Shown in pieces: positions 1,768 to 40,533 of a stretch of 64,000 bases of DNA. Source of the stretch: Hermatobates lingyangjiaoensis (Eukaryota; Arthropoda; Insecta; Hemiptera; Hermatobatidae); assembly GCA_026182355.1 (NCBI GenBank), contig JAPFBL010000257.1:248001-312000 (forward strand), in the 5' to 3' direction. The position numbers and the translations under genes were made by a program. Position 1 is the stretch's first letter, and every line of letters begins with the position of its first letter. A model generated the notes under the pieces. That model was not told where the DNA came from, did not search any database, and was given only the letters and a program-made list of their open reading frames with translations.

Positions 1768-3156
1768 TCAGTGAGGTTGAGGAAGGTTGGTGGGAGGATT
1801 TAGAGTTTGTACAAGGAGGTTGGGATGAGTAGGTAGTTTGTTGTCTTCATTGGTCGTAAGTCGGGTAATGTAACTATCTATGGATCCCATTTTCAATTCA
1901 TGGTGAATATCGACATTATGGGCGTACCAAGGAGCCCTGGATATAAGGCGGACACACTTATTTTGAACAATCTGGATACAAGCCTTGTTCATTGGTGTAG
2001 CTCTAAACCAGACGGAGCATCTATAAGTCATTGCAGAACGAACGACCCCCTTATAGACAAAGTCCTTGACCGAATCTGGAGAATTCCTTGATTTGAAAAG
2101 AGAATATAGATCACACATCAAGTAAATTCCAAGCTTGGATTTATTATGTAGGTGTTGCTTGAATGTTAGTCTAGAGTGTCCAATAAGACCCAGATATTTT
2201 ACATGGGTTTGGTAGGGAATGATCTGGTTACCAATGAAAACAGGAGGAGGACGGGGAGGGACACTTTTGCTGAATCGAACATGGGAACTCTTTGTTGGGT
2301 TCAACGCTAGTTTCCACTTTGTGAAACATTGCAATTTCCTGGTGGCATAGCTCACATTAGTACATCTATAAGCTACAGCGGTGTCATCCGCGTAGAGTCC
2401 AAGAAATGTCTCAATCTGATTGGGTGAATTGGGAGTTATTATAGCAGGAGGCTTGGAGAAGTCAAGTGTATACAGGCAATATAGGCTTGGACCAAGAACA
2501 CTGCCCTGGAGAACACCCCTATGCATTTGTCCAGTTGGAGAATGTCTATCATTAATAGAAACAAAAAAGTTTTGTCCAGAGAGGAAAGACCCTATAATCT
2601 CCACAAACCATTCAGGCAAACCAAAACAGCCTAGTTTGTGTAATAGACCACTCTGTCAGACCGAGTGGAACGCTCGCTCAAGATCCAGAAACACTGCCAC
2701 TGTCTTGTAAGGGAGGAATGGCCTCGCGAGTGTCGTTCCTTGCTTGATGAACTGGACCAATCTTCGAAGCTGTAAAGTTGTCCCATGTTCACTTCGGAAG
2801 CCAAACTGTTCCGGCTGGAATGGCAAATAGGGTTTGATTTTCAAAAGAATCAGCCTCTCAAAGACTTTTACCCAGACAGGGTAACAGACTAATAGGTCTA
2901 CAGTCCTGTGGGGAATGACCTGATTTGTGTGGTTTTGTAATAATATAACTTTTGCTAACTTCCACGCAGCTGGGAAGTAGCCCAGCCAAAGACAAGAGTT
3001 ATAAAGTGCAGTCAAGGCTGCTAAAACTTTAGGGGGAAGTTTAGAAAGTAATTGATTACTAATGCCATCATAACCGTGGTAAGATTTCGATTTAAGGGAT
3101 GACATGATATGATGTGTTGAATTTCGGATTTTGGAGTTAGGGAACTGGATCTTCAC
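1768..3156 (-). pseudogene. LINE reverse transcriptase, one in-frame stop
   Basis: RNA-directed DNA polymerase domain of the LINE. An N-terminal block (SYHGYDGISNQLL, FPAAWKLAKV) is followed by GFRSEHGTTLQL, the first catalytic-Asp block AVFLDLERAF, the GVLQGSVLGP motif and the active-site YADD (GLYADDTAVAY). After these come KYLGL and the usual C-terminal region ending near the HPN motif (THPNLL). The two halves, 3156-2656 and 2619-1768, are in the same frame and are separated by one TGA at 2653-2655, where the family normally has a Trp after AFDxV. All catalytic aspartates survive, so this is a fairly young dead copy. It would act at the chromosome by target-primed reverse transcription. 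Confidence 0.85.
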
Positions 3157-3174
3157 AGAGATTATAGCATAGCA

Positions 3175-3385
3175 TAGGGGATGCTATTGCAAATAAGAAC
3201 TGCTGTGCCACCCCCAAATGTGGGCCTGTTAGTTCTCTCTACTTTGTAGCCCGGAATGGAGAAGCAAATATTGGGCTTTAAGAAAATCTCAGACAATAGA
3301 ACCAAATCAGGTTTGAGAGATCTTAGCAGCTGAGAGAGTTCTGTCTTTCATCTCTGGACACCACCAGAATTGTACACAATGTAAG
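3175..3385 (-). pseudogene. LINE endonuclease N-terminus (fragment)
   Basis: The minus strand reads YNSGGVQR, a stop, then KTELSQLLRSLKPDLVLLSE, then IPGYKVERTNRP and GGGTAVLICNSIP. This is the beginning of an exonuclease-endonuclease-phosphatase domain that nicks target DNA in LINEs; the E of LLSE matches the conserved metal-binding Glu. A TGA interrupts it after GVQR. It joins almost directly to the RT block, so the catalytic His and Asp blocks are deleted. Confidence 0.7.
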
Positions 3386-18738: not shown

Positions 18739-19667
18739 TACGAGGTGTGTAAATAAAGTAGTGAGACTGGCAACGTCGCTTTCGATCTGGCAACGCTGGA
18801 GACGCGTGGCCTTGAGTAGCGTCAGGTGCACGTGTGATGCGCCTCCAGTATGAATCTGAACTCGCCACAGTCATTTGTTTGTCCGTAGCGTTGGTTTTCG
18901 TGAAATGGTTTTTTCTTGAGCGTTTTAAAAATGAGTGACCTCAAAGTTGAGCAGCGGTGTGCAATCAAATTTTGCTTCAGACTTGGACATAATGCAACCA
19001 AAACTTTTGAAAAACTTCAGGAGGCCTATGGAGAACGTGTTTTATCAAGGGCACAGGTTTTTCGGTGGTTTAAGGAATTTTCAGAAGGAAGAGAGTCGAT
19101 TGAAGATGAACCACGAAGCGGAAGGCCTTTAAGTGCAAACACCGATGAAAATGTCAACAGAGTACGGAACCTTGTGCGTTCAGATCGACGCTTGACAGTC
19201 AGAATGATCGGGGAACAGTTGAATTTGAATCACACCTCCGTTCATCACATTTTGACCAATGAATTGGAGATGAGACAAGTGGGTGTTGCATCACGACAAC
19301 GCGCCCTGTCACACTGCCATCTCAATAAACGAGTTTTTGGCCAGTAAAAACATTCCTGTTGCTCCTCAGCCTCCTTATTCACCAGACTTGAGTCCTTGTG
19401 ACTTTTTCCTCTTCCCGAGATTGAAAAATCACCTCAAGGGAACTCATTTCGGGACACTACAAAGCATACAAACTGCTGTAACCGACCAGCTGAAGGCCAT
19501 TCCAGAATCCGAGTTCCAGCAATGCTACAATGATTGGAAGGACCGTCTCCAGCGCTGTGTGGCTTCCGAAGGGAACTATTTTGAAGGTGACAATATCACA
19601 TTGTAATTATATTTGAATAGAAAATTTAAAAAAAATCAGTCTCACTACTTTATTTATACACCTCGTA
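18739..19667 (+). mobile_element. Mariner element, internally deleted, intact ends and TA duplication
   Basis: Terminal inverted repeats of 29 bp at 18741-18769 and 19637-19665 (CGAGGTGTGTAAATAAAGTA at the left) differ at one position. They are flanked by TA on both sides, the mariner target duplication. The whole element is 925 bp against about 1.3 kb for a full mariner, so roughly 350-400 bp are missing. It lies in a carrier-gene intron in the opposite orientation. With both ends intact it could still be moved by a transposase supplied elsewhere. Confidence 0.95.
18931..19606 (+). pseudogene. Mariner transposase, internal deletion with frameshift
   Basis: The ATG at 18931 opens MSDLKVEQRCAIKF, the first helix-turn-helix. 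FEKLQEAYGE, then FRWFKEFSEG and EDEPRSGRP (linker) follow, and then a second helix-turn-helix. Homology stops near ELEMRQV at about 19280. The frame then changes and resumes with HHDNAPCH, PYSPDLSPCDFFLFPRLK and the C-terminus, ending at 19606. The spacing between the Asp of HHDN and the Asp of PCDFF is 34 residues, the mariner DD34D signature. The first catalytic Asp block lies in the deleted part, so the enzyme cannot be active. Confidence 0.95.
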
Positions 19668-27980: not shown

Positions 27981-27986
27981 AACATG
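27981..27986 (+). other. Target-site duplication, left copy (AACATG)
   Basis: This 6 bp abuts the first base of the palindrome's left arm. The same 6 bp in the same orientation abuts the last base of the right arm at 40528-40533. Sequence further out differs on the two sides. Confidence 0.85.
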
Positions 27987-28007
27987 AGTAGTTAAGTTTT
28001 ATAAACT

Positions 28008-28085
28008 CTGGCACACTAGCTCGAATATTATTATAAATACTGGCACACTAGCTCGTATAGTATTATAAATACTGGAACTAGGTCA
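28008..28085. repeat. Subterminal 32 bp tandem repeats, left arm
   Basis: Two full units start at 28008 and 28040 with CTGGCACACTAGCTCG, and a third partial unit starts at 28072. The mirror copy is at about 40429-40506. Subterminal tandem arrays often serve as transposase-binding sites; that role is inferred. Confidence 0.85.
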
Positions 28086-28605
28086 CCCACCAGCTGTGTT
28101 ATGACTGGGGCTTGAACACTGACCTACTTTCAAGGTCACCCACAGCCCAACCTATCATTGGTGATATATATATTTATTTTTATATCATTTTAATAATTTT
28201 TTAGAGATGAAAATAGAAAAAAAAATGGTGATATAGAAGCGATATTTTAATTAAAGTGAATGGAGCATTGAGAAAGTTTGTTGACGAATGAACCCAGCCA
28301 GCTGGTCAACTGCCGCTTCAACCTCATTACTATACGAACACGGGTCACAATCATTCCCGTTAGAACCAAGACGTACTTCCCACACAATCTTGTGTATCCT
28401 ACTAACCTGACACACACTTCTGCCTCAACAACCTGTTCCCTACTAACAAACCCACTGACCCACCGCACCCACACCCCTCACCCACATGTACCACCCGCCT
28501 CCCACACCTTCCTGTTCCAGTCAGTCGGCCGCTCATTAGTATTCACCCCTTCTATACAGAGTTCCTTTGTCATCTGTTCATTATTATAAAACATCACCTT
28601 CCACT

Positions 28606-29345
28606 GCTGAGTGTAGGTATATTGAGTTTGGTATCATTTCACTCAGCGTGGGAAAATAATTTGGCTCGGATGGCACTTCGTGCTTTCCGAAATTTCATTA
28701 TTTTTTCGATATCTCTTACCGTTTACGAGTTACAGCCTTTTTTAGCCCTTAAAGCTATATTGTCAATAATGGGATGATATAGTAGAGTTTATTGATCATT
28801 ACCTTGTTGTAAATAACGAAGAAAGAGAAATTTGTATTGATTTTAGACTTTATTTGCTCATGTCATTTCGCTTTGAGTCCCTTCGAAGGGATCATAAGGG
28901 CTGAGTGGAGGTACATTGAGTTTGGTATCATTTCACTCAGCGTGGGAAAATAATTTGGCTCGGATGGCACTTCGTGCTTTCCGAAATTTCATTATTTTTT
29001 CGATATCTCTTACCGTTTACGAGTTACAGCCTTTTTTAGCCCTTAAAGCTATATTGTCAATAATGGGATGATATAGTAGAGTTTATTGATCATTACCTTG
29101 TTGTAAATAACGAGGAAAGAGAAATTTGTATTGATTTTAGACTTTATTTGCTCATGTCATTTCGCTTTGAGTCCCTTCGAAGGGATCATAAGGGCTGAGT
29201 GTAGGTACATTGAGTTTGGTATCATTTCACTCAGCGTGGGAAAATAATTTGGCTCGGATGGCACTTCGCGCATTATTTCATTATTTTTTCTATATTTCTT
29301 ACCGTTTACGAGTTAGAACCCTTTTTTAGCCCTTAATGCTATGTT
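28606..29345. repeat. 294 bp tandem repeat, about 2.5 units, left arm
   Basis: Units start at 28606, 28900 and 29194 with GCTGAGTG followed by AGGTA(T/C)ATTGAG. The third is cut short and more diverged. The first two differ at only a few positions. The mirror array occupies about 39169-39908. No open frame runs through it. Confidence 0.9.
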
Positions 29346-30159
29346 TTTACCAGTGGTAGTTTTTAGTTGTCTTTTATCATTAATAATGATAAGGAGTAAT
29401 TTTTAATCAGTTTGGATTATTTGATGTTCATCTGATGGGAATATCAGTTCTTTACAAGGGCTCGGAAGGGTCGAGAGATTGTTATGGGTATGGATTTTGA
29501 AATAACTTAACACCATCTGTAAATTTTATAAGGAATGCTTTATGCTTTTTACGTCAGCTGTCTACGGACTGTCCTACTGTTGATCATAACTAGCTTGACG
29601 CTAGAGTGTTGACTTCATCTGAGAACAAGCCAGAGCAATATTCACACATCATATATGGTCCCACACTTATATCAAACGTCTTCACCTCTATATGCAAACT
29701 CTCACCATCTTTTCCTCTTCCTCAATGTTTTGATTCACAAGTGGACTAATAACTGAGTCATATCTAACTCATGGTTACCCTAATGACATTACTGTACCAA
29801 GTGAATGTTATAATGCACACAATGAAAAAAAAAACTCATTGTTTTTGGTCTGGAGCTCAGTTGGGCATGTTCACTTGTAGTTCAACATGTCTCGCAGACT
29901 CTTGTTAGTTTACACACTCGCTGTACACAGACATCAATATCCAGATGGTCAAATCCTAATTTATTATTGAATTTATGTTGATTTTTTTTTTTAACACAAC
30001 ATTACTCATTAAATTGAGTAAGTTCAAAGGGGGTGGGTGAGGGAGGAGTGAATTGGATGCCAGCTCCTAACATGTCCATTATTATTGTAAATAAAATTAG
30101 CGTTAATGACATGGATAATCGTCCCGATAAAGGCTCGCTCCACCTGTCCAGACACTACA

Positions 30160-30360
30160 TGCTGGCTCCAGATGGAGGGGTCTGCGTGGAAAGAATAATT
30201 ACAAGAGAGTGTTATTCAAGCATGACTCATCCGCCCAAGGTGAGCCGACCTTAGCCTATCCAGCCACATCTCCTAAACCTGTCGAAACATGCTCAAGGTT
30301 ACCACCCGAGTCTACTGCAGTACATTAACCTTCTACATTAACGCTAAGACATGTCGCGTT
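30160..30360. repeat. Diverged copy of the inner-repeat block, left arm
   Basis: The stretch with AATAATTACA, GAGTGTTA and ATGACTCATCCGCCC parallels the block at 30690-30860 (AATAATTACACAAGAGTGTT, GATGATTCATCCAACC). It is an older direct duplication. The 73-codon frame across it (30033-30254) is probably not a gene. Confidence 0.6.
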
Positions 30361-30379
30361 GTATTTTTTCACATACACT

Positions 30380-30985
30380 CATAGTCAATGCAGTCCAATA
30401 TCCACCTGTTTCATATTACTGTTAATACTAATTTGAGCAAAGTATGCGTAAAAGAGACAATTATGAGGAAGCAGATAGGCAATATGAGATAAAATCACGT
30501 GTTTATGAGAGTGTATATTTAGATAAACACCACCTAGTATATGGTAGCTGTTATAATGGAGATAAAATTATCTCATGCGACAAGTGTCACTATGTGAGCG
30601 ATATTGAGACAGATTAATATAAATAATTTTAATTTGAGTATGCTAGTCAGACATAACTATCAAATGTGATGGGGTCATTGACCTTAGCCCATGCAGGCTC
30701 AGGTGGGACTGTGTGGACTGAATAATTACACAAGAGTGTTAGTCAGGGATGATTCATCCAACCTTGGTGAGGAGGGCCTGTCCTCCTAAGCCTATCCTAG
30801 CAGGTATGTTTGAGTACATTATTAACCGTCTCCATTGCAAGTCGAGACAAGTGATGATGAGACAAGGTGAGTGAATCATTAGGAGTGTTCTGGTCCGATT
30901 GCAAGTGAGTAGTTCAAGGTCACACGACTGAACGATTGGAAATACATAATCTACATTATACCCTGCTTAGTCTTGAACACTACAT
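30380..30985. repeat. Inner inverted repeat, left side of the left-arm protease gene
   Basis: It runs up to about 15 bp before the protease start codon. The same sequence, inverted and diverged, lies at 32965-33865 behind the gene. Matching landmarks are the GTGTATATTTAGATAAACAC segment, the GAGATAAAATTATCTCATGC segment and the GTTCAAGGTCACACGAC segment. Confidence 0.85.
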
Positions 30986-30999
30986 TGTAGGAGAAGGAC

Positions 31000-32565
31000 A
31001 TGATGTTTTACATTTTGTTAGTCTCTATGTCAGTCATTCACTTATGCAGAGGAGTAGACTACATCGGATACTTGAAAACATATGGCTATTTGGAGGACGC
31101 AAGTAAAGAAGAAGGTGTTGCTTCAATATATAGCAACGGTGTTGTTAAAAATGCCATTCGTTTATTTCAAAATAATTTCAATATTGATACTAGTGGAGAA
31201 TTAACGTCCGAGACTTTACATTTGATGGAAAGCCCAAGATGTGGGGTAAAAGATGATGTTTTATCTAGATATTCTACAAAAGGAACATTGGAAAATCTAA
31301 AATGGAAAGTAAACACGATAAAATGGTACACATACGACAGTGAAATACCTCACGATATTGTTGAAAAAGCCTTATTTCTTTGGGAAGAGCATGCTAACAT
31401 AAGTTTTATTAAAAGCAAAGACAAACCAAACATCGTCATGAAATTCTCCGACGCAAATCATACAATGATTCAAAACAATGCCACATTATGTCAACCATTT
31501 GAGAAAGTCACGATAGCTCATGCATATTCTCCAAAAACTGGACTTTATGATGACACGCTTGAAATGCATTTTAACAATGAACATTATAACTGGGAAATGA
31601 CAATGAAATTGCCTGAAGACGGAGACATATCATTTTTTCATACACTTGTACATGAAATTGGTCATACTTTGGGTTTGAACCATAATACAGTCAATAGAAA
31701 CTCTATTATGCATCCAATTTATAGAATACCAGATGGTATACGAAACATGAGCGAGCTTGCTTTAGATCCCACCGACATTTCATCAATTGTAAAGTTATAT
31801 GGGAAAAAACCTGTGAAATCAGCTGATACAACTTCTACTAATTCATTACCAGGAATGGAAGAAATGAACTACGTCACGGATCTTTGCTCCTACAGATATA
31901 AAATTGATCATGTTCTAATCACTCAAAAATCAGTTTATTTCTTTTACAAGAAATATGCATGGAGAGTGAGTTTAGTGGAGTCATTAAGAAGTAAATACCA
32001 AATGTCAGCTGCATATAGAATAAATCAATGGTTGGGCTTTTTTCTAAGAAACTTTAACGGAATAGATTCAATTTACCAAAATCGTAATGGAAACCTTGTA
32101 ATGTTTGTTAATAATACAGTTTACACTGTTGATTTTCCCCGTCTCCGTTTGGTTAAGAAAGAACCATTGATGAATATTGTTCATCACGGAATGATGAAGA
32201 CTATAACAGGATCATATGTTGACTACTTGGGAAGAGTTTATTTAATTGCAGACCACTATTACCTACTAGAAGCGCTCGAAAATGAATTTGTTATAAAAGG
32301 TACATTGGAAGATCTATATCATGGCTTAAATGCAAGAAGTATTACATCAGTGTTTCGTCATATGAACGGTAAATTATATTTCAATTACAAAAAAGAAGGC
32401 TATTTTGTGGAATATGATGAATATTTACAAAGTGTTACAGGAAACATTGTAAATGTCTTAGAACTGTTTAACATAACCTGTGTAGAAGACAGTATCCTTA
32501 ACGATATTCACGACCTAACTAACCAATTGATTCACTTACAACGAGAGAAAAAAATGTTGATATAA
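31000..32565 (+). CDS. Secreted matrix metalloproteinase with hemopexin domain, left-arm copy
   Basis: 521 codons, no intron, first ATG chosen because the signal peptide follows at once (hydrophobic core FYILLVSMSVIHLC, residues 3-16, probable cut after about 18). The propeptide (19-88) has a peptidoglycan-binding-like fold ending in the cysteine switch PRCGVKD (Cys81). The catalytic domain (about 100-268) has AHAYSP and the zinc site HEIGHTLGLNH (218-228, general base Glu219), with Met-turn SIMHP (Met237). A hinge leads to a hemopexin-like domain bounded by Cys296 and Cys494, as in the family disulfide, and a charged helical tail. I predict a zinc endopeptidase of extracellular matrix, secreted and self-inhibited until the switch is removed. 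A polyadenylation signal AATAAA lies at 32760. Intronless structure in a mobile element suggests capture from a processed or viral source. The copy in the right arm encodes the identical protein. Confidence 0.95.
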   Translation: MMFYILLVSMSVIHLCRGVDYIGYLKTYGYLEDASKEEGVASIYSNGVVKNAIRLFQNNFNIDTSGELTSETLHLMESPRCGVKDDVLSRYSTKGTLENLKWKVNTIKWYTYDSEIPHDIVEKALFLWEEHANISFIKSKDKPNIVMKFSDANHTMIQNNATLCQPFEKVTIAHAYSPKTGLYDDTLEMHFNNEHYNWEMTMKLPEDGDISFFHTLVHEIGHTLGLNHNTVNRNSIMHPIYRIPDGIRNMSELALDPTDISSIVKLYGKKPVKSADTTSTNSLPGMEEMNYVTDLCSYRYKIDHVLITQKSVYFFYKKYAWRVSLVESLRSKYQMSAAYRINQWLGFFLRNFNGIDSIYQNRNGNLVMFVNNTVYTVDFPRLRLVKKEPLMNIVHHGMMKTITGSYVDYLGRVYLIADHYYLLEALENEFVIKGTLEDLYHGLNARSITSVFRHMNGKLYFNYKKEGYFVEYDEYLQSVTGNIVNVLELFNITCVEDSILNDIHDLTNQLIHLQREKKMLI

Positions 32566-32964
32566 TAACAAAATTCGATGCATACAACATTTCACTGGCT
32601 TGTCACATCGGCTACAGTCAGTAGCCAATGACAATGATTTGTCAGGAATAGACAAAGGACAGGAATTGGTTCCTCTGTGCTACATGATCGATCAGTCAAT
32701 CAGATCTGTTATTAGAAAATGTGTTAATATTCAAAGACATGTACACAATTAGTCAAAGTAATAAATATTTTGATTGAATTTTTGTTTTTTTCCACCCCCC
32801 AGCTGTCATGTATTTATTGTAATTGAGTTAATAAAGAGACAAGATAGATCAATTGTTTAAAAATCAATGCTACTTTATATAAATATTATATTCAGCCTAT
32901 AGGAACAATAGGATGTAATTCTTTCATCAATTGTTATTGTATAACTGCGTAAATAGTATACTCT

Positions 32965-33442
32965 GGTCAGTCTTGAACACTAGGTTCAGTCGTGTGAACT
33001 TGAACTACTCACTTGCGATCGGACCAGAACACTCTTAATGTTTCACACGCCTTGTCTCATCATTACTTGTCTCGACTTGCAATGGAGATGGTTAATAATG
33101 TACTCAAACATACCTGCCAGGATAGGCTTAGGAGGACAGGCCCTCCTCACCAAGGTTGGATGAATCATCCCTGACTAACACTCTTGTGTAATTATTCAGT
33201 CCACACAGTCCCACCTGAGCCTGCATGGGCTAAGGTCAATGACCCCATCACATTTGATAGTCATGTCTGACTAGCATTCTCAAATTAAAATTATTTATAT
33301 TAATCTGTCTCAATATCACTCACATAGTGATACTTGTCGCATGAGATAATTTTATCTCCATTATTACATTTATATTAAAGTAAAATAAGTCACTTCATCA
33401 TCTCAAGAATAAAACGCCTCGATCATCCATATCATTAGAGCC

Positions 33443-33494
<52 letters not shown>

Positions 33495-33865
33495 AGAATA
33501 TTTACATCTTTATACCATCAAACTAATAACATCTAGCAAACCAATTAAGTTGGATAGGTTCATAATGATTTAAAGAAAAAAAAAAATATGGATATTGATG
33601 TGATTTTGAAGTAATTTTAGTATCACCTGTGCTTTTTTTTTTTTAACATCATTTCCATACACTTTATAACTACATGCTGTAAAAATATCACTAAGTCCAC
33701 CAAAATAATAATAAGGAGTGTTTATCTAAATATACACTCTCCGTAAACATCTGACTATATTTCATAGTGTGTCTCTCTACACCTCATGATTGACTCTTTT
33801 ACACAGACTTTGCTCAAATTATCATTAATAGTGATATGAAACAGGTGGATATTGGAATGATTTGG
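32965..33865. repeat. Inner inverted repeat, right side of the left-arm protease gene
   Basis: Inverted and diverged relative to 30380-30985. It is interrupted by about 345 bp (33370-33715) that include a pure (CT)22 tract at 33447-33490. The interruption is absent from the left inner repeat, so it is either a later insertion here or a loss there. Confidence 0.8.
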
Positions 33866-33884
33866 CTTGATTTAGTTGAATGAC

Positions 33885-33924
<40 letters not shown>

Positions 33925-33930
33925 AGAGAG
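33885..33930. repeat. (GA)n microsatellite, left arm
   Basis: 46 bp with two interruptions. Its mirror in the right arm (34583-34624) is a pure (CT)21 of 42 bp, so the arms have drifted here. Confidence 0.9.
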
Positions 33931-34237
33931 CACACTTGCTAGTCTTTTGAACTAGCATATTATATCTTGTAGTAGATATAATAGGAGAGAGCTGTCACAG
34001 GGCTACTGAGCAGTTCAAGGTCACACGAAGGGACCATTAGGGACCAATTAGAGTAAGAACTATAATACATTTACCAAAACTATCTACAACTCACATAGAA
34101 AACTAACACAAATTATTGAGACCAACAGATACTTAAAAAAAGATTATTTTATAATCAGAGTTCTTAAGTACACATCTATTTCAAAGTAACAAACAAAAGG
34201 AAATTAGTTTTACCTTGGAAAGTGTGCTAAGGGTTAT

Positions 34238-34275
34238 TATGTAACTTATCATGTAATGGTTATCATGTAACTTAA
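34238..34275. other. Central spacer of the giant palindrome
   Basis: 38 bp of non-mirrored DNA between GGGTTAT and ATAACCC. It contains two direct copies of TATCATGTAA (34247-34256 and 34261-34270) and a third imperfect one at its left edge. Direct microrepeats at the turn-around point suggest template switching when the palindrome was formed. Confidence 0.85.
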
Positions 34276-34581
34276 ATAACCCTTAGCACACTTTCCAAGG
34301 TAAAACTAATTTCCTTTTGTTTGTTACTTTGAAATAGATGTGTACTTAAGAACTCTGATTATAAAATAATCTTTTTTTAAGTATCTGTTGGTCTCAATAA
34401 TTTGTGTTAGTTTTCTATGTGAGTTGTAGATAGTTTTGGTAAATGTATTATAGTTCTTACTCTACTTGGTCCCTAATGGTCCCTTCGTGTGACCTTGAAC
34501 TGCTCAGTAGCCCTGTGACAGCTCTCTCCTATTATATCTACTACAAGATATAATATGCTAGTTCAAAAGACTAGCAAGTGT

Positions 34582-34582
<1 letters not shown>

Positions 34583-34627
<45 letters not shown>

Positions 34628-35013
34628 ATTCAACTAAATCAAGCCAAATCATTCCAATATCCACCTGTTTCATATCACTATTAATGATAATTTGAGCAAA
34701 GTCTGTGTAAAAGAGTCAATCATGAGGTGTAGAGAGACACACTATGAAATATAGTCAGATGTTTACGGAGAGTGTATATTTAGATAAACACTCCTTATTA
34801 TTATTTTGGTGGACTTAGTGATATTTTTACAGCATGTAGTTATAAAGTGTATGGAAATGATGTTAAAAAAAAAAAAGCACAGGTGATACTAAAATTACTT
34901 CAAAATCACATCAATATCCATATTTTTTTTTTCTTTAAATCATTATGAACCTATCCAACTTAATTGGTTTGCTAGATGTTATTAGTTTGATGGTATAAAG
35001 ATGTAAATATTCT

Positions 35014-35068
<55 letters not shown>
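34583..35068. repeat. CT and GA microsatellites of the right arm
   Basis: Pure (CT)21 at 34583-34624 and (GA)25 at 35019-35068, counterparts of the left-arm tracts at 33885-33930 and 33447-33490. The second is 6 bp longer than its partner. Confidence 0.9.
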
Positions 35069-35073
<5 letters not shown>

Positions 35074-35550
35074 GGCTCTAATGATATGGATGATCGAGGC
35101 GTTTTATTCTTGAGATGATGAAGTGACTTATTTTACTTTAATATAAATGTAATAATGGAGATAAAATTATCTCATGCGACAAGTATCACTATGTGAGTGA
35201 TATTGAGACAGATTAATATAAATAATTTTAATTTGAGAATGCTAGTCAGACATGACTATCAAATGTGATGGGGTCATTGACCTTAGCCCATGCAGGCTCA
35301 GGTGGGACTGTGTGGACTGAATAATTACACAAGAGTGTTAGTCAGGGATGATTCATCCAACCTTGGTGAGGAGGGCCTGTCCTCCTAAGCCTATCCTGGC
35401 AGGTATGTTTGAGTACATTATTAACCATCTCCATTGCAAGTCGAGACAAGTAATGATGAGACAAGGCGTGTGAAACATTAAGAGTGTTCTGGTCCGATCG
35501 CAAGTGAGTAGTTCAAGTTCACACGACTGAACCTAGTGTTCAAGACTGAC
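34650..35550. repeat. Inner inverted repeat, spacer side of the right-arm protease gene
   Basis: Mirror of 32965-33865. It follows the end of the right-arm protease gene on the minus strand. Confidence 0.8.
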
Positions 35551-35949
35551 CAGAGTATACTATTTACGCAGTTATACAATAACAATTGATGAAAGAATTA
35601 CATCCTATTGTTCCTATAGGCTGAATATAATATTTATATAAAGTAGCATTGATTTTTAAACAATTGATCTATCTTGTCTCTTTATTAACTCAATTACAAT
35701 AAATACATGACAGCTGGGGGTGGAAAAAAACAAAAATTCAATCAAAATATTTATTACTTTGACTAATTGTGTACATGTCTTTGAATATTAACACATTTTC
35801 TAATAACAGATCTGATTGACTGATCGATCATGTAGCACAGAGGAACCAATTCCTGTCCTTTGTCTATTCCTGACAAATCATTGTCATTGGCTACTGACTG
35901 TAGCCGATGTGACAAGCCAGTGAAATGTTGTATGCATCGAATTTTGTTA

Positions 35950-37515
35950 TTATATCAACATTTTTTTCTCTCGTTGTAAGTGAATCAATTGGTTAGTTAG
36001 GTCGTGAATATCGTTAAGGATACTGTCTTCTACACAGGTTATGTTAAACAGTTCTAAGACATTTACAATGTTTCCTGTAACACTTTGTAAATATTCATCA
36101 TATTCCACAAAATAGCCTTCTTTTTTGTAATTGAAATATAATTTACCGTTCATATGACGAAACACTGATGTAATACTTCTTGCATTTAAGCCATGATATA
36201 GATCTTCCAATGTACCTTTTATAACAAATTCATTTTCGAGCGCTTCTAGTAGGTAATAGTGGTCTGCAATTAAATAAACTCTTCCCAAGTAGTCAACATA
36301 TGATCCTGTTATAGTCTTCATCATTCCGTGATGAACAATATTCATCAATGGTTCTTTCTTAACCAAACGGAGACGGGGAAAATCAACAGTGTAAACTGTA
36401 TTATTAACAAACATTACAAGGTTTCCATTACGATTTTGGTAAATTGAATCTATTCCGTTAAAGTTTCTTAGAAAAAAGCCCAACCATTGATTTATTCTAT
36501 ATGCAGCTGACATTTGGTATTTACTTCTTAATGACTCCACTAAACTCACTCTCCATGCATATTTCTTGTAAAAGAAATAAACTGATTTTTGAGTGATTAG
36601 AACATGATCAATTTTATATCTGTAGGAGCAAAGATCCGTGACGTAGTTCATTTCTTCCATTCCTGGTAATGAATTAGTAGAAGTTGTATCAGCTGATTTC
36701 ACAGGTTTTTTCCCATATAACTTTACAATTGATGAAATGTCGGTGGGATCTAAAGCAAGCTCGCTCATGTTTCGTATACCATCTGGTATTCTATAAATTG
36801 GATGCATAATAGAGTTTCTATTGACTGTATTATGGTTCAAACCCAAAGTATGACCAATTTCATGTACAAGTGTATGAAAAAATGATATGTCTCCGTCTTC
36901 AGGCAATTTCATTGTCATTTCCCAGTTATAATGTTCATTGTTAAAATGCATTTCAAGCGTGTCATCATAAAGTCCAGTTTTTGGAGAATATGCATGAGCT
37001 ATCGTGACTTTCTCAAATGGTTGACATAATGTGGCATTGTTTTGAATCATTGTATGATTTGCGTCGGAGAATTTCATGACGATGTTTGGTTTGTCTTTGC
37101 TTTTAATAAAACTTATGTTAGCATGCTCTTCCCAAAGAAATAAGGCTTTTTCAACAATATCGTGAGGTATTTCACTGTCGTATGTGTACCATTTTATCGT
37201 GTTTACTTTCCATTTTAGATTTTCCAATGTTCCTTTTGTAGAATATCTAGATAAAACATCATCTTTTACCCCACATCTTGGGCTTTCCATCAAATGTAAA
37301 GTCTCGGACGTTAATTCTCCACTAGTATCAATATTGAAATTATTTTGAAATAAACGAATGGCATTTTTAACAACACCGTTGCTATATATTGAAGCAACAC
37401 CTTCTTCTTTACTTGCGTCCTCCAAATAGCCATATGTTTTCAAGTATCCGATGTAGTCTACTCCTCTGCATAAGTGAATGACTGACATAGAGACTAACAA
37501 AATGTAAAACATCAT
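35950..37515 (-). CDS. Secreted matrix metalloproteinase with hemopexin domain, right-arm copy
   Basis: Mirror copy of the left-arm gene: 521 codons, identical predicted protein, with the same signal peptide, cysteine switch (Cys81), zinc site (218-228), Met-turn and Cys296-Cys494 hemopexin domain. The two genes converge on the central spacer, about 1.7 kb from their stop codons. Read-through of either would make antisense RNA to the other. No stop or frameshift separates the copies, so they are either very recently formed or kept alike by gene conversion. A polyadenylation signal (AATAAA on the minus strand) lies near 35755. Confidence 0.95.
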   Translation of the reverse strand: MMFYILLVSMSVIHLCRGVDYIGYLKTYGYLEDASKEEGVASIYSNGVVKNAIRLFQNNFNIDTSGELTSETLHLMESPRCGVKDDVLSRYSTKGTLENLKWKVNTIKWYTYDSEIPHDIVEKALFLWEEHANISFIKSKDKPNIVMKFSDANHTMIQNNATLCQPFEKVTIAHAYSPKTGLYDDTLEMHFNNEHYNWEMTMKLPEDGDISFFHTLVHEIGHTLGLNHNTVNRNSIMHPIYRIPDGIRNMSELALDPTDISSIVKLYGKKPVKSADTTSTNSLPGMEEMNYVTDLCSYRYKIDHVLITQKSVYFFYKKYAWRVSLVESLRSKYQMSAAYRINQWLGFFLRNFNGIDSIYQNRNGNLVMFVNNTVYTVDFPRLRLVKKEPLMNIVHHGMMKTITGSYVDYLGRVYLIADHYYLLEALENEFVIKGTLEDLYHGLNARSITSVFRHMNGKLYFNYKKEGYFVEYDEYLQSVTGNIVNVLELFNITCVEDSILNDIHDLTNQLIHLQREKKMLI

Positions 37516-37529
37516 GTCCTTCTCCTACA

Positions 37530-38134
37530 ATGTAGTGTTCAAGACTAAGCAGGGTATAATGTAGATTATGTATTTCCAATCGTTCAGTCGTGTGACCTTG
37601 AACTACTCACTTGCAATCGGACCAGAACACTCCTAATGATTCACTCACCTTGTCTCATCATCACTTGTCTCGACTTGCAATGGAGACGGTTAATAATGTA
37701 CTCAAACATACCTGCTAGGATAGGCTTAGGAGGACAGGCCCTCCTCACCAAGGTTGGATGAATCATCCCTGACTAACACTCTTGTGTAATTATTCAGTCC
37801 ACACAGTCCCACCTGAGCCTGCATGGGCTAAGGTCAATGACCCCATCACATTTGATAGTTATGTCTGACTAGCATACTCAAATTAAAATTATTTATATTA
37901 ATCTGTCTCAATATCGCTCACATAGTGACACTTGTCGCATGAGATAATTTTATCTCCATTATAACAGCTACCATATACTAGGTGGTGTTTATCTAAATAT
38001 ACACTCTCATAAACACGTGATTTTATCTCATATTGCCTATCTGCTCCTCATAATTGTCTCTTTTACGCATACTTTGCTCAAATTAGTATTAACAGTAATA
38101 TGAAACAGGTGGATATTGGACTGCATTGACTATG
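37530..38134. repeat. Inner inverted repeat, outer side of the right-arm protease gene
   Basis: Mirror of 30380-30985. It contains the one-base difference (CTGCTCC against CTGCTTCC) that shifts the arm register. Confidence 0.8.
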
Positions 38135-39168
38135 AGTGTATGTGAAAAAATACAACGCGACATGTCTTAGCGTTAATGTAGAAGGTTAATGTACTGCAGT
38201 AGACTCGGGTGGTAACCTTGAGCATGTTTCGACAGGTTTAGGAGATGTGGCTGGATAGGCTAAGGTCGGCTCACCTTGGGCGGATGAGTCATGCTTGAAT
38301 AACACTCTCTTGTAATTATTCTTTCCACGCAGACCCCTCCATCTGGAGCCAGCATGTAGTGTCTGGACAGGTGGAGCGAGCCTTTATCGGGACGATTATC
38401 CATGTCATTAACGCTAATTTTATTTACAATAATAATGGACATGTTAGGAGCTGGCATCCAATTCACTCCTCCCTCACCCACCCCCTTTGAACTTACTCAA
38501 TTTAATGAGTAATGTTGTGTTAAAAAAAAAAATCAACATAAATTCAATAATAAATTAGGATTTGACCATCTGGATATTGATGTCTGTGTACAGCGAGTGT
38601 GTAAACTAACAAGAGTCTGCGAGACATGTTGAACTACAAGTGAACATGCCCAACTGAGCTCCAGACCAAAAACAATGAGTTTTTTTTTTCATTGTGTGCA
38701 TTATAACATTCACTTGGTACAGTAATGTCATTAGGGTAACCATGAGTTAGATATGACTCAGTTATTAGTCCACTTGTGAATCAAAACATTGAGGAAGAGG
38801 AAAAGATGGTGAGAGTTTGCATATAGAGGTGAAGACGTTTGATATAAGTGTGGGACCATATATGATGTGTGAATATTGCTCTGGCTTGTTCTCAGATGAA
38901 GTCAACACTCTAGCGTCAAGCTAGTTATGATCAACAGTAGGACAGTCCGTAGACAGCTGACGTAAAAAGCATAAAGCATTCCTTATAAAATTTACAGATG
39001 GTGTTAAGTTATTTCAAAATCCATACCCATAACAATCTCTCGACCCTTCCGAGCCCTTGTAAAGAACTGATATTCCCATCAGATGAACATCAAATAATCC
39101 AAACTGATTAAAAATTACTCCTTATCATTATTAATGATAAAAGACAACTAAAAATTACCACTGGTAAA

Positions 39169-39908
39169 AACATAGCATTAAGGGCTAAAAAAGGGTTCTA
39201 ACTCGTAAACGGTAAGAAATATAGAAAAAATAATGAAATAATGCGCGAAGTGCCATCCGAGCCAAATTATTTTCCCACGCTGAGTGAAATGATACCAAAC
39301 TCAATGTACCTACACTCAGCCCTTATGATCCCTTCGAAGGGACTCAAAGCGAAATGACATGAGCAAATAAAGTCTAAAATCAATACAAATTTCTCTTTCC
39401 TCGTTATTTACAACAAGGTAATGATCAATAAACTCTACTATATCATCCCATTATTGACAATATAGCTTTAAGGGCTAAAAAAGGCTGTAACTCGTAAACG
39501 GTAAGAGATATCGAAAAAATAATGAAATTTCGGAAAGCACGAAGTGCCATCCGAGCCAAATTATTTTCCCACGCTGAGTGAAATGATACCAAACTCAATG
39601 TACCTCCACTCAGCCCTTATGATCCCTTCGAAGGGACTCAAAGCGAAATGACATGAGCAAATAAAGTCTAAAATCAATACAAATTTCTCTTTCTTCGTTA
39701 TTTACAACAAGGTAATGATCAATAAACTCTACTATATCATCCCATTATTGACAATATAGCTTTAAGGGCTAAAAAAGGCTGTAACTCGTAAACGGTAAGA
39801 GATATCGAAAAAATAATGAAATTTCGGAAAGCACGAAGTGCCATCCGAGCCAAATTATTTTCCCACGCTGAGTGAAATGATACCAAACTCAATATACCTA
39901 CACTCAGC
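39169..39908. repeat. 294 bp tandem repeat, right arm
   Basis: Mirror of 28606-29345 with the same unit boundaries and the same internal variants. This shows the tandem array was already formed before the arms were duplicated. Confidence 0.9.
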
Positions 39909-40428
39909 AGTGGAAGGTGATGTTTTATAATAATGAACAGATGACAAAGGAACTCTGTATAGAAGGGGTGAATACTAATGAGCGGCCGACTGACTGGAAC
40001 AGGAAGGTGTGGGAGGCGGGTGGTACATGTGGGTGAGGGGTGTGGGTGCGGTGGGTCAGTGGGTTTGTTAGTAGGGAACAGGTTGTTGAGGCAGAAGTGT
40101 GTGTCAGGTTAGTAGGATACACAAGATTGTGTGGGAAGTACGTCTTGGTTCTAACGGGAATGATTGTGACCCGTGTTCGTATAGTAATGAGGTTGAAGCG
40201 GCAGTTGACCAGCTGGCTGGGTTCATTCGTCAACAAACTTTCTCAATGCTCCATTCACTTTAATTAAAATATCGCTTCTATATCACCATTTTTTTTTCTA
40301 TTTTCATCTCTAAAAAATTATTAAAATGATATAAAAATAAATATATATATCACCAATGATAGGTTGGGCTGTGGGTGACCTTGAAAGTAGGTCAGTGTTC
40401 AAGCCCCAGTCATAACACAGCTGGTGGG

Positions 40429-40506
40429 TGACCTAGTTCCAGTATTTATAATACTATACGAGCTAGTGTGCCAGTATTTATAATAATATTCGAGCTAGTG
40501 TGCCAG
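40429..40506. repeat. Subterminal 32 bp tandem repeats, right arm
   Basis: Mirror of 28008-28085, ending about 20 bp inside the right terminus. Confidence 0.85.
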
Positions 40507-40527
40507 AGTTTATAAAACTTAACTACT

Positions 40528-40533
40528 AACATG
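40528..40533 (+). other. Target-site duplication, right copy (AACATG)
   Basis: Directly follows the terminal CTACT of the right arm and matches 27981-27986. Confidence 0.85.

What the first reader, a model, noticed from the sequence alone, without database searches (positions are those of the whole stretch)
27981..40533. A 12.5 kb palindrome that is itself a transposon: giant inverted repeats, 6 bp target duplication, metalloproteinase cargo
Seen: two arms of about 6.25 kb are near-perfect reverse complements around a 38 bp spacer, and identical AACATG copies abut both ends exactly. Known: Polinton/Maverick elements have 5'-AG ends and 6 bp duplications; Dada elements make 6-7 bp duplications. 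Inference: this is a foldback or internally deleted relative of such an element, or a new class, carrying a secreted protease instead of the usual replication genes. Flanks that are not mirrored, together with the duplication, argue against a fold-back assembly artefact.
Basis: partly seen in the sequence, partly recalled or inferred. Interest (0 to 1): 0.95.

Follow-up and report, generated by a model that had tools for sequence, protein, structure and literature searches.

The report
Palindromic Polinton satellites carrying a metalloproteinase
A 12.5-kb stretch of this animal genome looks like a jumping DNA element that is one near-perfect mirror image from end to end, has similar copies elsewhere in the genome, seems to borrow the machinery of virus-like Polinton transposons, and carries a gene for a matrix-digesting enzyme in each half.

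Summary
Arms 27987-34238 and 34275-40527 are near-perfect reverse complements (two substitutions) around a 36-nt loop, and AACATG abuts both ends. It is one copy of a family. Nine further copies, each read as two halves, are mirrored too. 13 of 14 copies with both ends read have a perfect 6-bp duplication. The ends, AGTAGT...ACTACT, match a published Maverick motif, and the first 122 bp are identical to both ends of a 16.8-kb Polinton in the same genome with integrase, polymerase and capsid genes. Some private changes sit at mirrored places in both arms, so arms have been copied from each other; one-arm differences also exist, concentrated in a few arms. A separate palindrome (C66) is half a Polinton, a loop, and the mirrored half, with its own duplication. 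My reading is a non-autonomous snapback derivative of Polintons, comparable to AAV snapback genomes, that spread as a transposon with a proMMP-like gene in each arm. Mobilisation by Polinton enzymes and hairpin replication are inferred; gene conversion is a live rival. Six answered paper searches listed no such element.

The parts
27981..27986 (.). left target-site duplication AACATG
27987..34238 (+). left arm of the palindrome (6252 nt)
27987..28108 (+). left terminal 122 bp, 100% identical to both ends of the C370 Polinton
28606..29345 (+). about 2.5 tandem units of ~294 bp; other copies have more matches to this unit
30549..30933 (+). 385-nt repeat, inverted partner at 32984-33368, flanking the metalloproteinase gene
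31003..32565 (+). intronless 520-aa proMMP-like gene (cysteine switch PRCG and HExGHxxGxxH zinc site as read by me, hemopexin-like C-terminus), left copy
32760..32765 (+). AATAAA, possible polyadenylation signal after the gene (motif recalled, not tested)
32984..33368 (+). inverted partner of the 385-nt repeat
34239..34274 (.). 36-nt central loop; of 10 copies read it is exact (either orientation) in 4, altered in 5, absent in 1
34275..40527 (-). right arm of the palindrome (6253 nt)
35950..37512 (-). proMMP-like gene, right copy, same protein; the two copies converge on the loop
39169..39908 (-). tandem units of ~294 bp, right copy (low edge calculated by mirroring the left copy)
40406..40527 (-). 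right terminal 122 bp
40528..40533 (.). right target-site duplication AACATG

Best explanation
The feature is a non-autonomous, fully palindromic derivative of a Polinton/Maverick, in effect an integrated snapback satellite genome. Shown: the element is a palindrome with Polinton-type ends, a 6-bp duplication and an MMP gene per arm; it is multicopy; the same loop, exact or altered, is recognisable in 9 of 10 copies read; private changes have been copied between arms; and the genome holds a Polinton with identical tips plus an independent half-Polinton palindrome. Inferred: the palindrome arose when a displaced strand, made by protein-primed replication, folded back and was extended along its own sequence, giving half genome, loop, and mirrored half with the same end twice. 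The element is replicated and integrated in trans by Polinton PolB and integrase. A displaced single strand of it can snap into a full-length hairpin, so one arm can template the other. The MMP, probably secreted, is cargo, possibly serving spread through the extracellular matrix.
For: Nine further copies mirrored, of nine read as two halves. 6-bp duplications in 13 of 14 family copies, TA in the middle of 10 of the 13 (binomial tail 3.5e-8 against TA in the flanks). First 122 bp 100% identical to both ends of C370:847-17662, which matches rve integrase, DNA_pol_B_2, double jelly-roll capsid, PLA2-like and BIR, and A32 ATPase just under its cut-off. The (AGT)2//(ACT)2 motif and 6-bp duplication match published Mavericks (PMC8097293, passages). 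Ten private changes in six elements with intact genes are present at mirrored places in both arms. C66:276095-290125 is an independent palindrome with PolB in each arm (3 differences in 4344 nt), a spacer of about 690 bp, another tip and duplication TCGAAT; 5.1 kb of its arm is colinear with the right half of C370 and its spacer with the next part of C370. C250 has mirrored PolB stretches without a substitution in 1403 nt, C632 identical ones over 1001 nt. AAV snapback genomes, which replicate with Rep and helper functions, are a documented parallel (PMC8235507, passages).
Against: No transposition, extrachromosomal form or hairpin was observed. Beyond the tips the MMP arm shares almost nothing with the Polintons read, so its parent is unknown. 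The C370 PolB has an in-frame stop, though seven PolB matches elsewhere lie in open frames of 1175-1215 aa. One-arm differences are frequent: 27 one-arm against 13 mirrored sites in the six elements with intact genes, and 112 against 9 in all ten. They are concentrated in a few arms and may be base-call errors, but that is not proven. The stretch between tip and gene differs by hundreds of nt between the arms of C1584, C74 and C79, and the C211 right arm has lost the MMP gene. C79 has no matching duplication. C66 lacks about 2 kb of C370 inside its arm, and its outer 1.3 kb is mostly unlike C370. The C222 PolB pair is no closer to each other than to C66.
Confidence: 0.72

Rival explanations
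1. Palindromic Polinton derivative as above, but changes are copied between arms by ordinary gene conversion on the chromosome (as in Y-chromosome palindromes, recalled), not by hairpin replication during transposition.
For: In the five-element comparison, C74 and C101 are each mixed at a site where other elements carry both variants, as conversion tracts would give. One-arm differences exist, so the arms are not forced to be identical.
Against: Five elements differ from each other by only 1-5 changes in 3627 columns, yet each of them has at least one private change that is already mirrored, so conversion would have to be fast after insertion. The half-Polinton palindrome C66 needs a fold-back event for its origin in any case.
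Confidence: 0.35
2. Assembly or sequencing artefact: fold-back reads or arm collapse made palindromes out of one-armed insertions, and polishing copied bases between arms.
For: C147, C79 and C76 have arms with clustered differences, and C84, C147, C79 and C4 have broken gene frames, as poor base calls in long inverted repeats would give. Mirrored private changes could be polished in.
Against: A fold-back read cannot create a correct 6-bp duplication beside a different right flank; 15 of 16 elements tested have one, two of them (C1614, C370) in TA runs and so weak. The same loop recurs at separate loci. Some arms of one element differ in length by hundreds of nt or by a deletion, so arms were assembled separately.
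Confidence: 0.06
3. A foldback element of a classical cut-and-paste superfamily (FB/Galileo type) or a Dada element, with a chance resemblance of its ends to Polinton.
For: Long inverted repeats with internal tandem repeats are typical of foldback elements (recalled); Dada makes 6-7 bp duplications (finding text).
Against: 122 bp of identity to both ends of a Polinton, the (AGT)2 motif and a consistent 6-bp duplication. FB and Galileo duplications are 9 and 7 bp (recalled).
Confidence: 0.04

Closest known systems
Polinton/Maverick self-synthesizing transposons (polintoviruses)
   Same: 6-bp duplication, (AGT)2//(ACT)2 ends, 122-bp terminal identity to a Polinton in the same genome
   Different: No PolB, integrase, ATPase or capsid frame; the entire element is a palindrome; MMP cargo; 12.5 kb against the 15-20 kb given for Polintons (PMC4028283, passages)
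AAV snapback defective genomes (5'-SBG and 3'-SBG; PMC8235507, passages seen)
   Same: One genome end plus part of the genome, self-complementary with or without a loop, needing helper proteins in trans
   Different: AAV forms are packaged molecules; here the palindrome is integrated, has a duplication and has multiplied as a chromosomal family
Palindromic defective adenovirus genomes (recalled, not looked up)
   Same: Protein-primed linear DNA that forms mirror-image end duplications
   Different: Not known to me as integrating elements
Foldback elements (FB, Galileo; recalled)
   Same: Very long inverted repeats with internal tandem repeats
   Different: Different duplication length and transposase superfamily

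Membership tests
Polinton/Maverick | 6-bp target-site duplication | tested here: met
   window AACATG; 13 of 14 family copies
Polinton/Maverick | (AG)3//(CT)3 or (AGT)2//(ACT)2 end motif, as given for vertebrate elements | tested here: met
   AGTAGT...ACTACT against PMC8097293 passages
Polinton/Maverick | terminal repeat shared with a gene-bearing Polinton | tested here: met
   122 bp, 100%, both ends of C370
Polinton/Maverick | own protein-primed PolB | tested here: not met
   per arm, frames of 90 aa or more are the MMP and two short overlapping ones, plus one frame across the right end
Polinton/Maverick | own rve integrase, packaging ATPase, capsid proteins | tested here: not met
   hence filed as a non-autonomous derivative, not as a Polinton
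Polinton/Maverick | mobilised by Polinton integrase | not testable with these tools
   inferred from ends and duplication length
AAV-type snapback genome (works like) | self-complementary part genome with loop and one end type | tested here: met
   C66 against C370; for the window the self-complementarity is met but its parent genome is unknown
AAV-type snapback genome (works like) | replicates as a hairpin with helper proteins | not testable with these tools
   mirrored private changes are consistent, not proof
Dada | Dada transposase and small-RNA-gene targets (recalled) | tested here: inconclusive
   no long frame besides the MMP in the element; Rfam scan of the window has no match; other insertion sites not scanned
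Foldback (FB/Galileo) | 9- or 7-bp duplication (recalled) | tested here: not met
   6 bp

The most novel reading that the evidence does not exclude
Snapback genomes of a protein-primed DNA virus lineage have become a stable class of mobile element. Near-perfect palindromes, formed more than once from Polintons, are inherited in the chromosome, amplified in trans and renewed as hairpins, and one lineage has swapped all viral genes for an MMP, acting as a satellite that may help its helper leave tissues.
Probability: 0.42. Interest if true: 0.92.

Novelty: new variant of a known kind. Interest (0 to 1): 0.85.

Why it matters
Defective snapback genomes are known as by-products of virus replication. 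Here such genomes appear fixed in an animal chromosome, formed at least twice, and in one case multiplied as a transposon. That would give a record of protein-primed replication in Polintons, for which a single-stranded intermediate has been proposed (PMC4046053, passages), and a way to test it: a palindrome stays mirrored across transposition if one arm templates the other or if conversion is fast, and young insertions can tell these apart. The elements also show how a protease gene can be carried by a virus-like satellite.

Tried and rejected
Artefact, chance, Dada, foldback superfamilies and simple internal deletion were considered and set aside for the reasons given.

Searches that led nowhere: MMP in viral contigs (no relative); C370 capsid protein in viral contigs (none); PHROGs for the MMP and two short frames (none); Rfam on the window (none). 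Paper searches: 24 (57 papers, 20 listed), 93 (8 of 8 listed), 94 (16, 12 listed), 95 (11 of 11), 115 (5 of 5), 116 (11 of 11); no listed title or abstract start describes a palindromic or snapback Polinton or an MMP-bearing Polinton. Passages of PMC6431247 and PMC8504770 did not either. Paper some searches failed; look-ups (malformed; not held) gave no text. The C632 centre lies in tandem simple sequence and is weak evidence on its own.

Selection on the MMP is undecided: variable sites inside the gene are 0 of 8 in five elements (coordinates judged by me), 0 of 16 in six and 4 of 52 in ten, while the gene is about 39% of those columns; but C211 shows three amino-acid changes and no silent one in 1233 nt.
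Full report
What is there. The window holds a 12,541-bp palindrome: arms 27987-34238 and 34275-40527, two substitutions between them, remaining differences mostly in CT/GA or homopolymer runs, a 36-nt loop, and AACATG flush against both ends. Each arm has a 122-bp tip shared with a Polinton, tandem units of about 294 bp, an intronless 520-aa matrix metalloproteinase gene, and a 385-nt inverted repeat on either side of that gene. The two genes converge on the loop. G+C is about 0.34-0.37 inside against about 0.26-0.30 for most neighbouring 2-kb bins, though other bins of the window reach 0.32-0.40.

It is a family. A 420-bp query (duplication plus tip) matches 60 places in the 910-Mb assembly (92 candidates, 40 scored, so a lower bound). 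Fourteen pairs, including the window, are inverted ends about 11-15 kb apart. I read nine further pairs as two overlapping halves; all nine are mirrored, C84 being disordered at the centre. Other matches were read in part. C211 is a palindrome whose right arm has lost the stretch with the MMP gene. C213 is mirrored through its centre and has a broken MMP frame. Of C104, C1614 and C1629 I read only the ends. C97 is a truncated relative about 87% alike without an MMP match in the 7 kb read. Single-ended matches at C50, C364, C72, C1515, C1615 and C49 were not read. Of the ten fully read copies including the window, the loop is exact in four (window, C1584, C74, C101; either orientation), recognisable but altered in five, and absent in C84. 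One founder that multiplied as a palindrome explains this best.

It transposes with a Polinton signature. 13 of 14 family copies with both ends read have a perfect 6-bp duplication; C79 does not. TA is in the middle of 10 of the 13 (tail 3.5e-8 against the flank frequency of TA); C1614 lies in a TA run and is weak. The C370 Polinton also sits in a TA run with duplication TATATA; C66 has TCGAAT, without the central TA. The ends AGTAGT...ACTACT match one of the two end motifs reported for vertebrate Mavericks, which also have 6-bp duplications (PMC8097293, passages only).

There is a likely helper. C370:847-17662 is a 16.8-kb Polinton with a terminal repeat of about 248 bp whose first 122 bp are identical to the palindrome tip at both ends. 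Its frames match rve integrase, DNA_pol_B_2, the double jelly-roll capsid domain, a phospholipase A2-like domain and BIR, and poxvirus A32 at E 0.00019, just under the cut-off; protease and minor capsid frames are my reading and had no Pfam match. Its PolB is interrupted by one in-frame stop; seven PolB matches elsewhere lie in open frames of 1175-1215 aa.

Palindromes formed more than once. Of 33 PolB matches, five loci have them in mirrored pairs: C66, C632, C250, C222 and C1615. C66:276095-290125 has arms of about 6.7 kb with PolB in each, a spacer of about 690 bp, another tip and the duplication TCGAAT. 5.1 kb of its arm is colinear with C370 16078-10950 (92-93%), and its spacer with C370 8982-8196; about 2 kb of C370 between them is missing, and the outer 1.3 kb of the C66 arm is unlike the C370 right end apart from about 130 bp like its left subterminal part. 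So C66 is essentially the polymerase half of a Polinton, a loop, and the mirrored half. Mirrored PolB stretches of C250 agree without substitution over 1403 nt; those of C632 are identical over 1001 nt, but equally identical to C250, so they say nothing about homogenisation. C222 is mirrored but not closer to itself than to C66 (98.3 and 98.4%). C1615 is known only from coordinates. The ends of these four were not read.

Arms have been copied from each other, with exceptions. In five elements (window, C1626, C1584, C74, C101) 5050 gap-clean columns hold 19 variable sites, 14 mirrored and 5 differing between arms; these five were chosen after one search showed no arm difference in them, which favours the result. 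Chosen instead by an uninterrupted MMP frame in both arms (the five plus C76), there are 13 mirrored and 27 one-arm sites, of which 10 mirrored and 25 one-arm are private to one element. With all ten (17-20 arms per region), 9 are mirrored and 112 one-arm. The one-arm sites are concentrated: arm-to-arm differences in 3627 columns are 0 in five elements, 1 in C84, 4 in C4, 7 in C76, 14 in C147 and 21 in C79, many in clusters within single arms, and look to me like base-call errors, which I cannot prove. Ten private changes at mirrored places still need copying between arms (or polishing errors). The tip-to-gene distance agrees to within about 20 nt in seven of ten elements and differs by about 580, 610 and 990 nt in C1584, C74 and C79 (calculated).

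The cargo. The protein has a signal-like N-terminus (my reading), the PRCG cysteine switch, HEIGHTLGLNH, and a C-terminal domain framed by two invariant cysteines. A model of moderate confidence (mean pLDDT 70.7, pTM 0.49) matches full-length proMMP-1 (Foldseek E 3.9e-24, domains not superposed as a whole, rmsd 19.9) and single MMP catalytic and hemopexin domains. The nearest proteins are 27-34% identical: three unnamed sequences and one annotated from the beetle Onthophagus taurus. The reading frame is uninterrupted and identical over 515 aa in 10 of 18 arms outside the window, and in both window arms. A role in crossing basement membranes is speculation.

Mechanism. Protein-primed replication displaces single strands. 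If a truncated strand folds back and is extended along itself, the product is part of the genome in mirror image with the same end twice. Once formed, its single strands are full hairpins, so a round of replication can re-copy one arm from the other, and Polinton integrase can insert the duplex because only the ends matter. The anatomy, the family, the ends, the duplications and some copying between arms are shown; the replication route and trans-mobilisation are inferred. AAV snapback genomes are the nearest described parallel (PMC8235507, passages).

Limits. The genome search answered only twice, so copy number, empty sites (not searched), any MMP-bearing parent Polinton and the host's identity are open. 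No raw reads were available, so assembly and polishing effects on arm identity cannot be excluded.

Noticed in passing
L035 (G000 C84:8838993-8843151): A 4.2-kb relative with 615-bp terminal repeats (99.35%) and a non-mirrored interior with pieces about 69-85% like the palindrome arm; no clear 6-bp duplication.
   Followed up: partly
L054 and L055 (G000 C370:847-17662): A Polinton carrying a PLA2-like domain and a BIR domain frame besides the usual genes; its PolB has an in-frame stop.
   Followed up: partly
L056-L058 (G000 C66:276095-290125): A palindromic half-Polinton with PolB in each arm and duplication TCGAAT.
   Followed up: yes
L038-L039 (G000 C211): One arm of a subfamily-2 palindrome has lost the MMP gene, with one breakpoint at the 385-nt repeat.
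   Followed up: partly
L021-L022 (G000 C79): Mirrored copy whose two flanks do not share a duplication (TATATG and TTCCTT).
   Followed up: no
window 18904-19606: Two overlapping frames that look like a broken mariner transposase (recalled resemblance, not searched).
   Followed up: no
window 1768-3183, minus strand: Frames with a YADD motif that look like a non-LTR reverse transcriptase (recalled resemblance, not searched).
   Followed up: no
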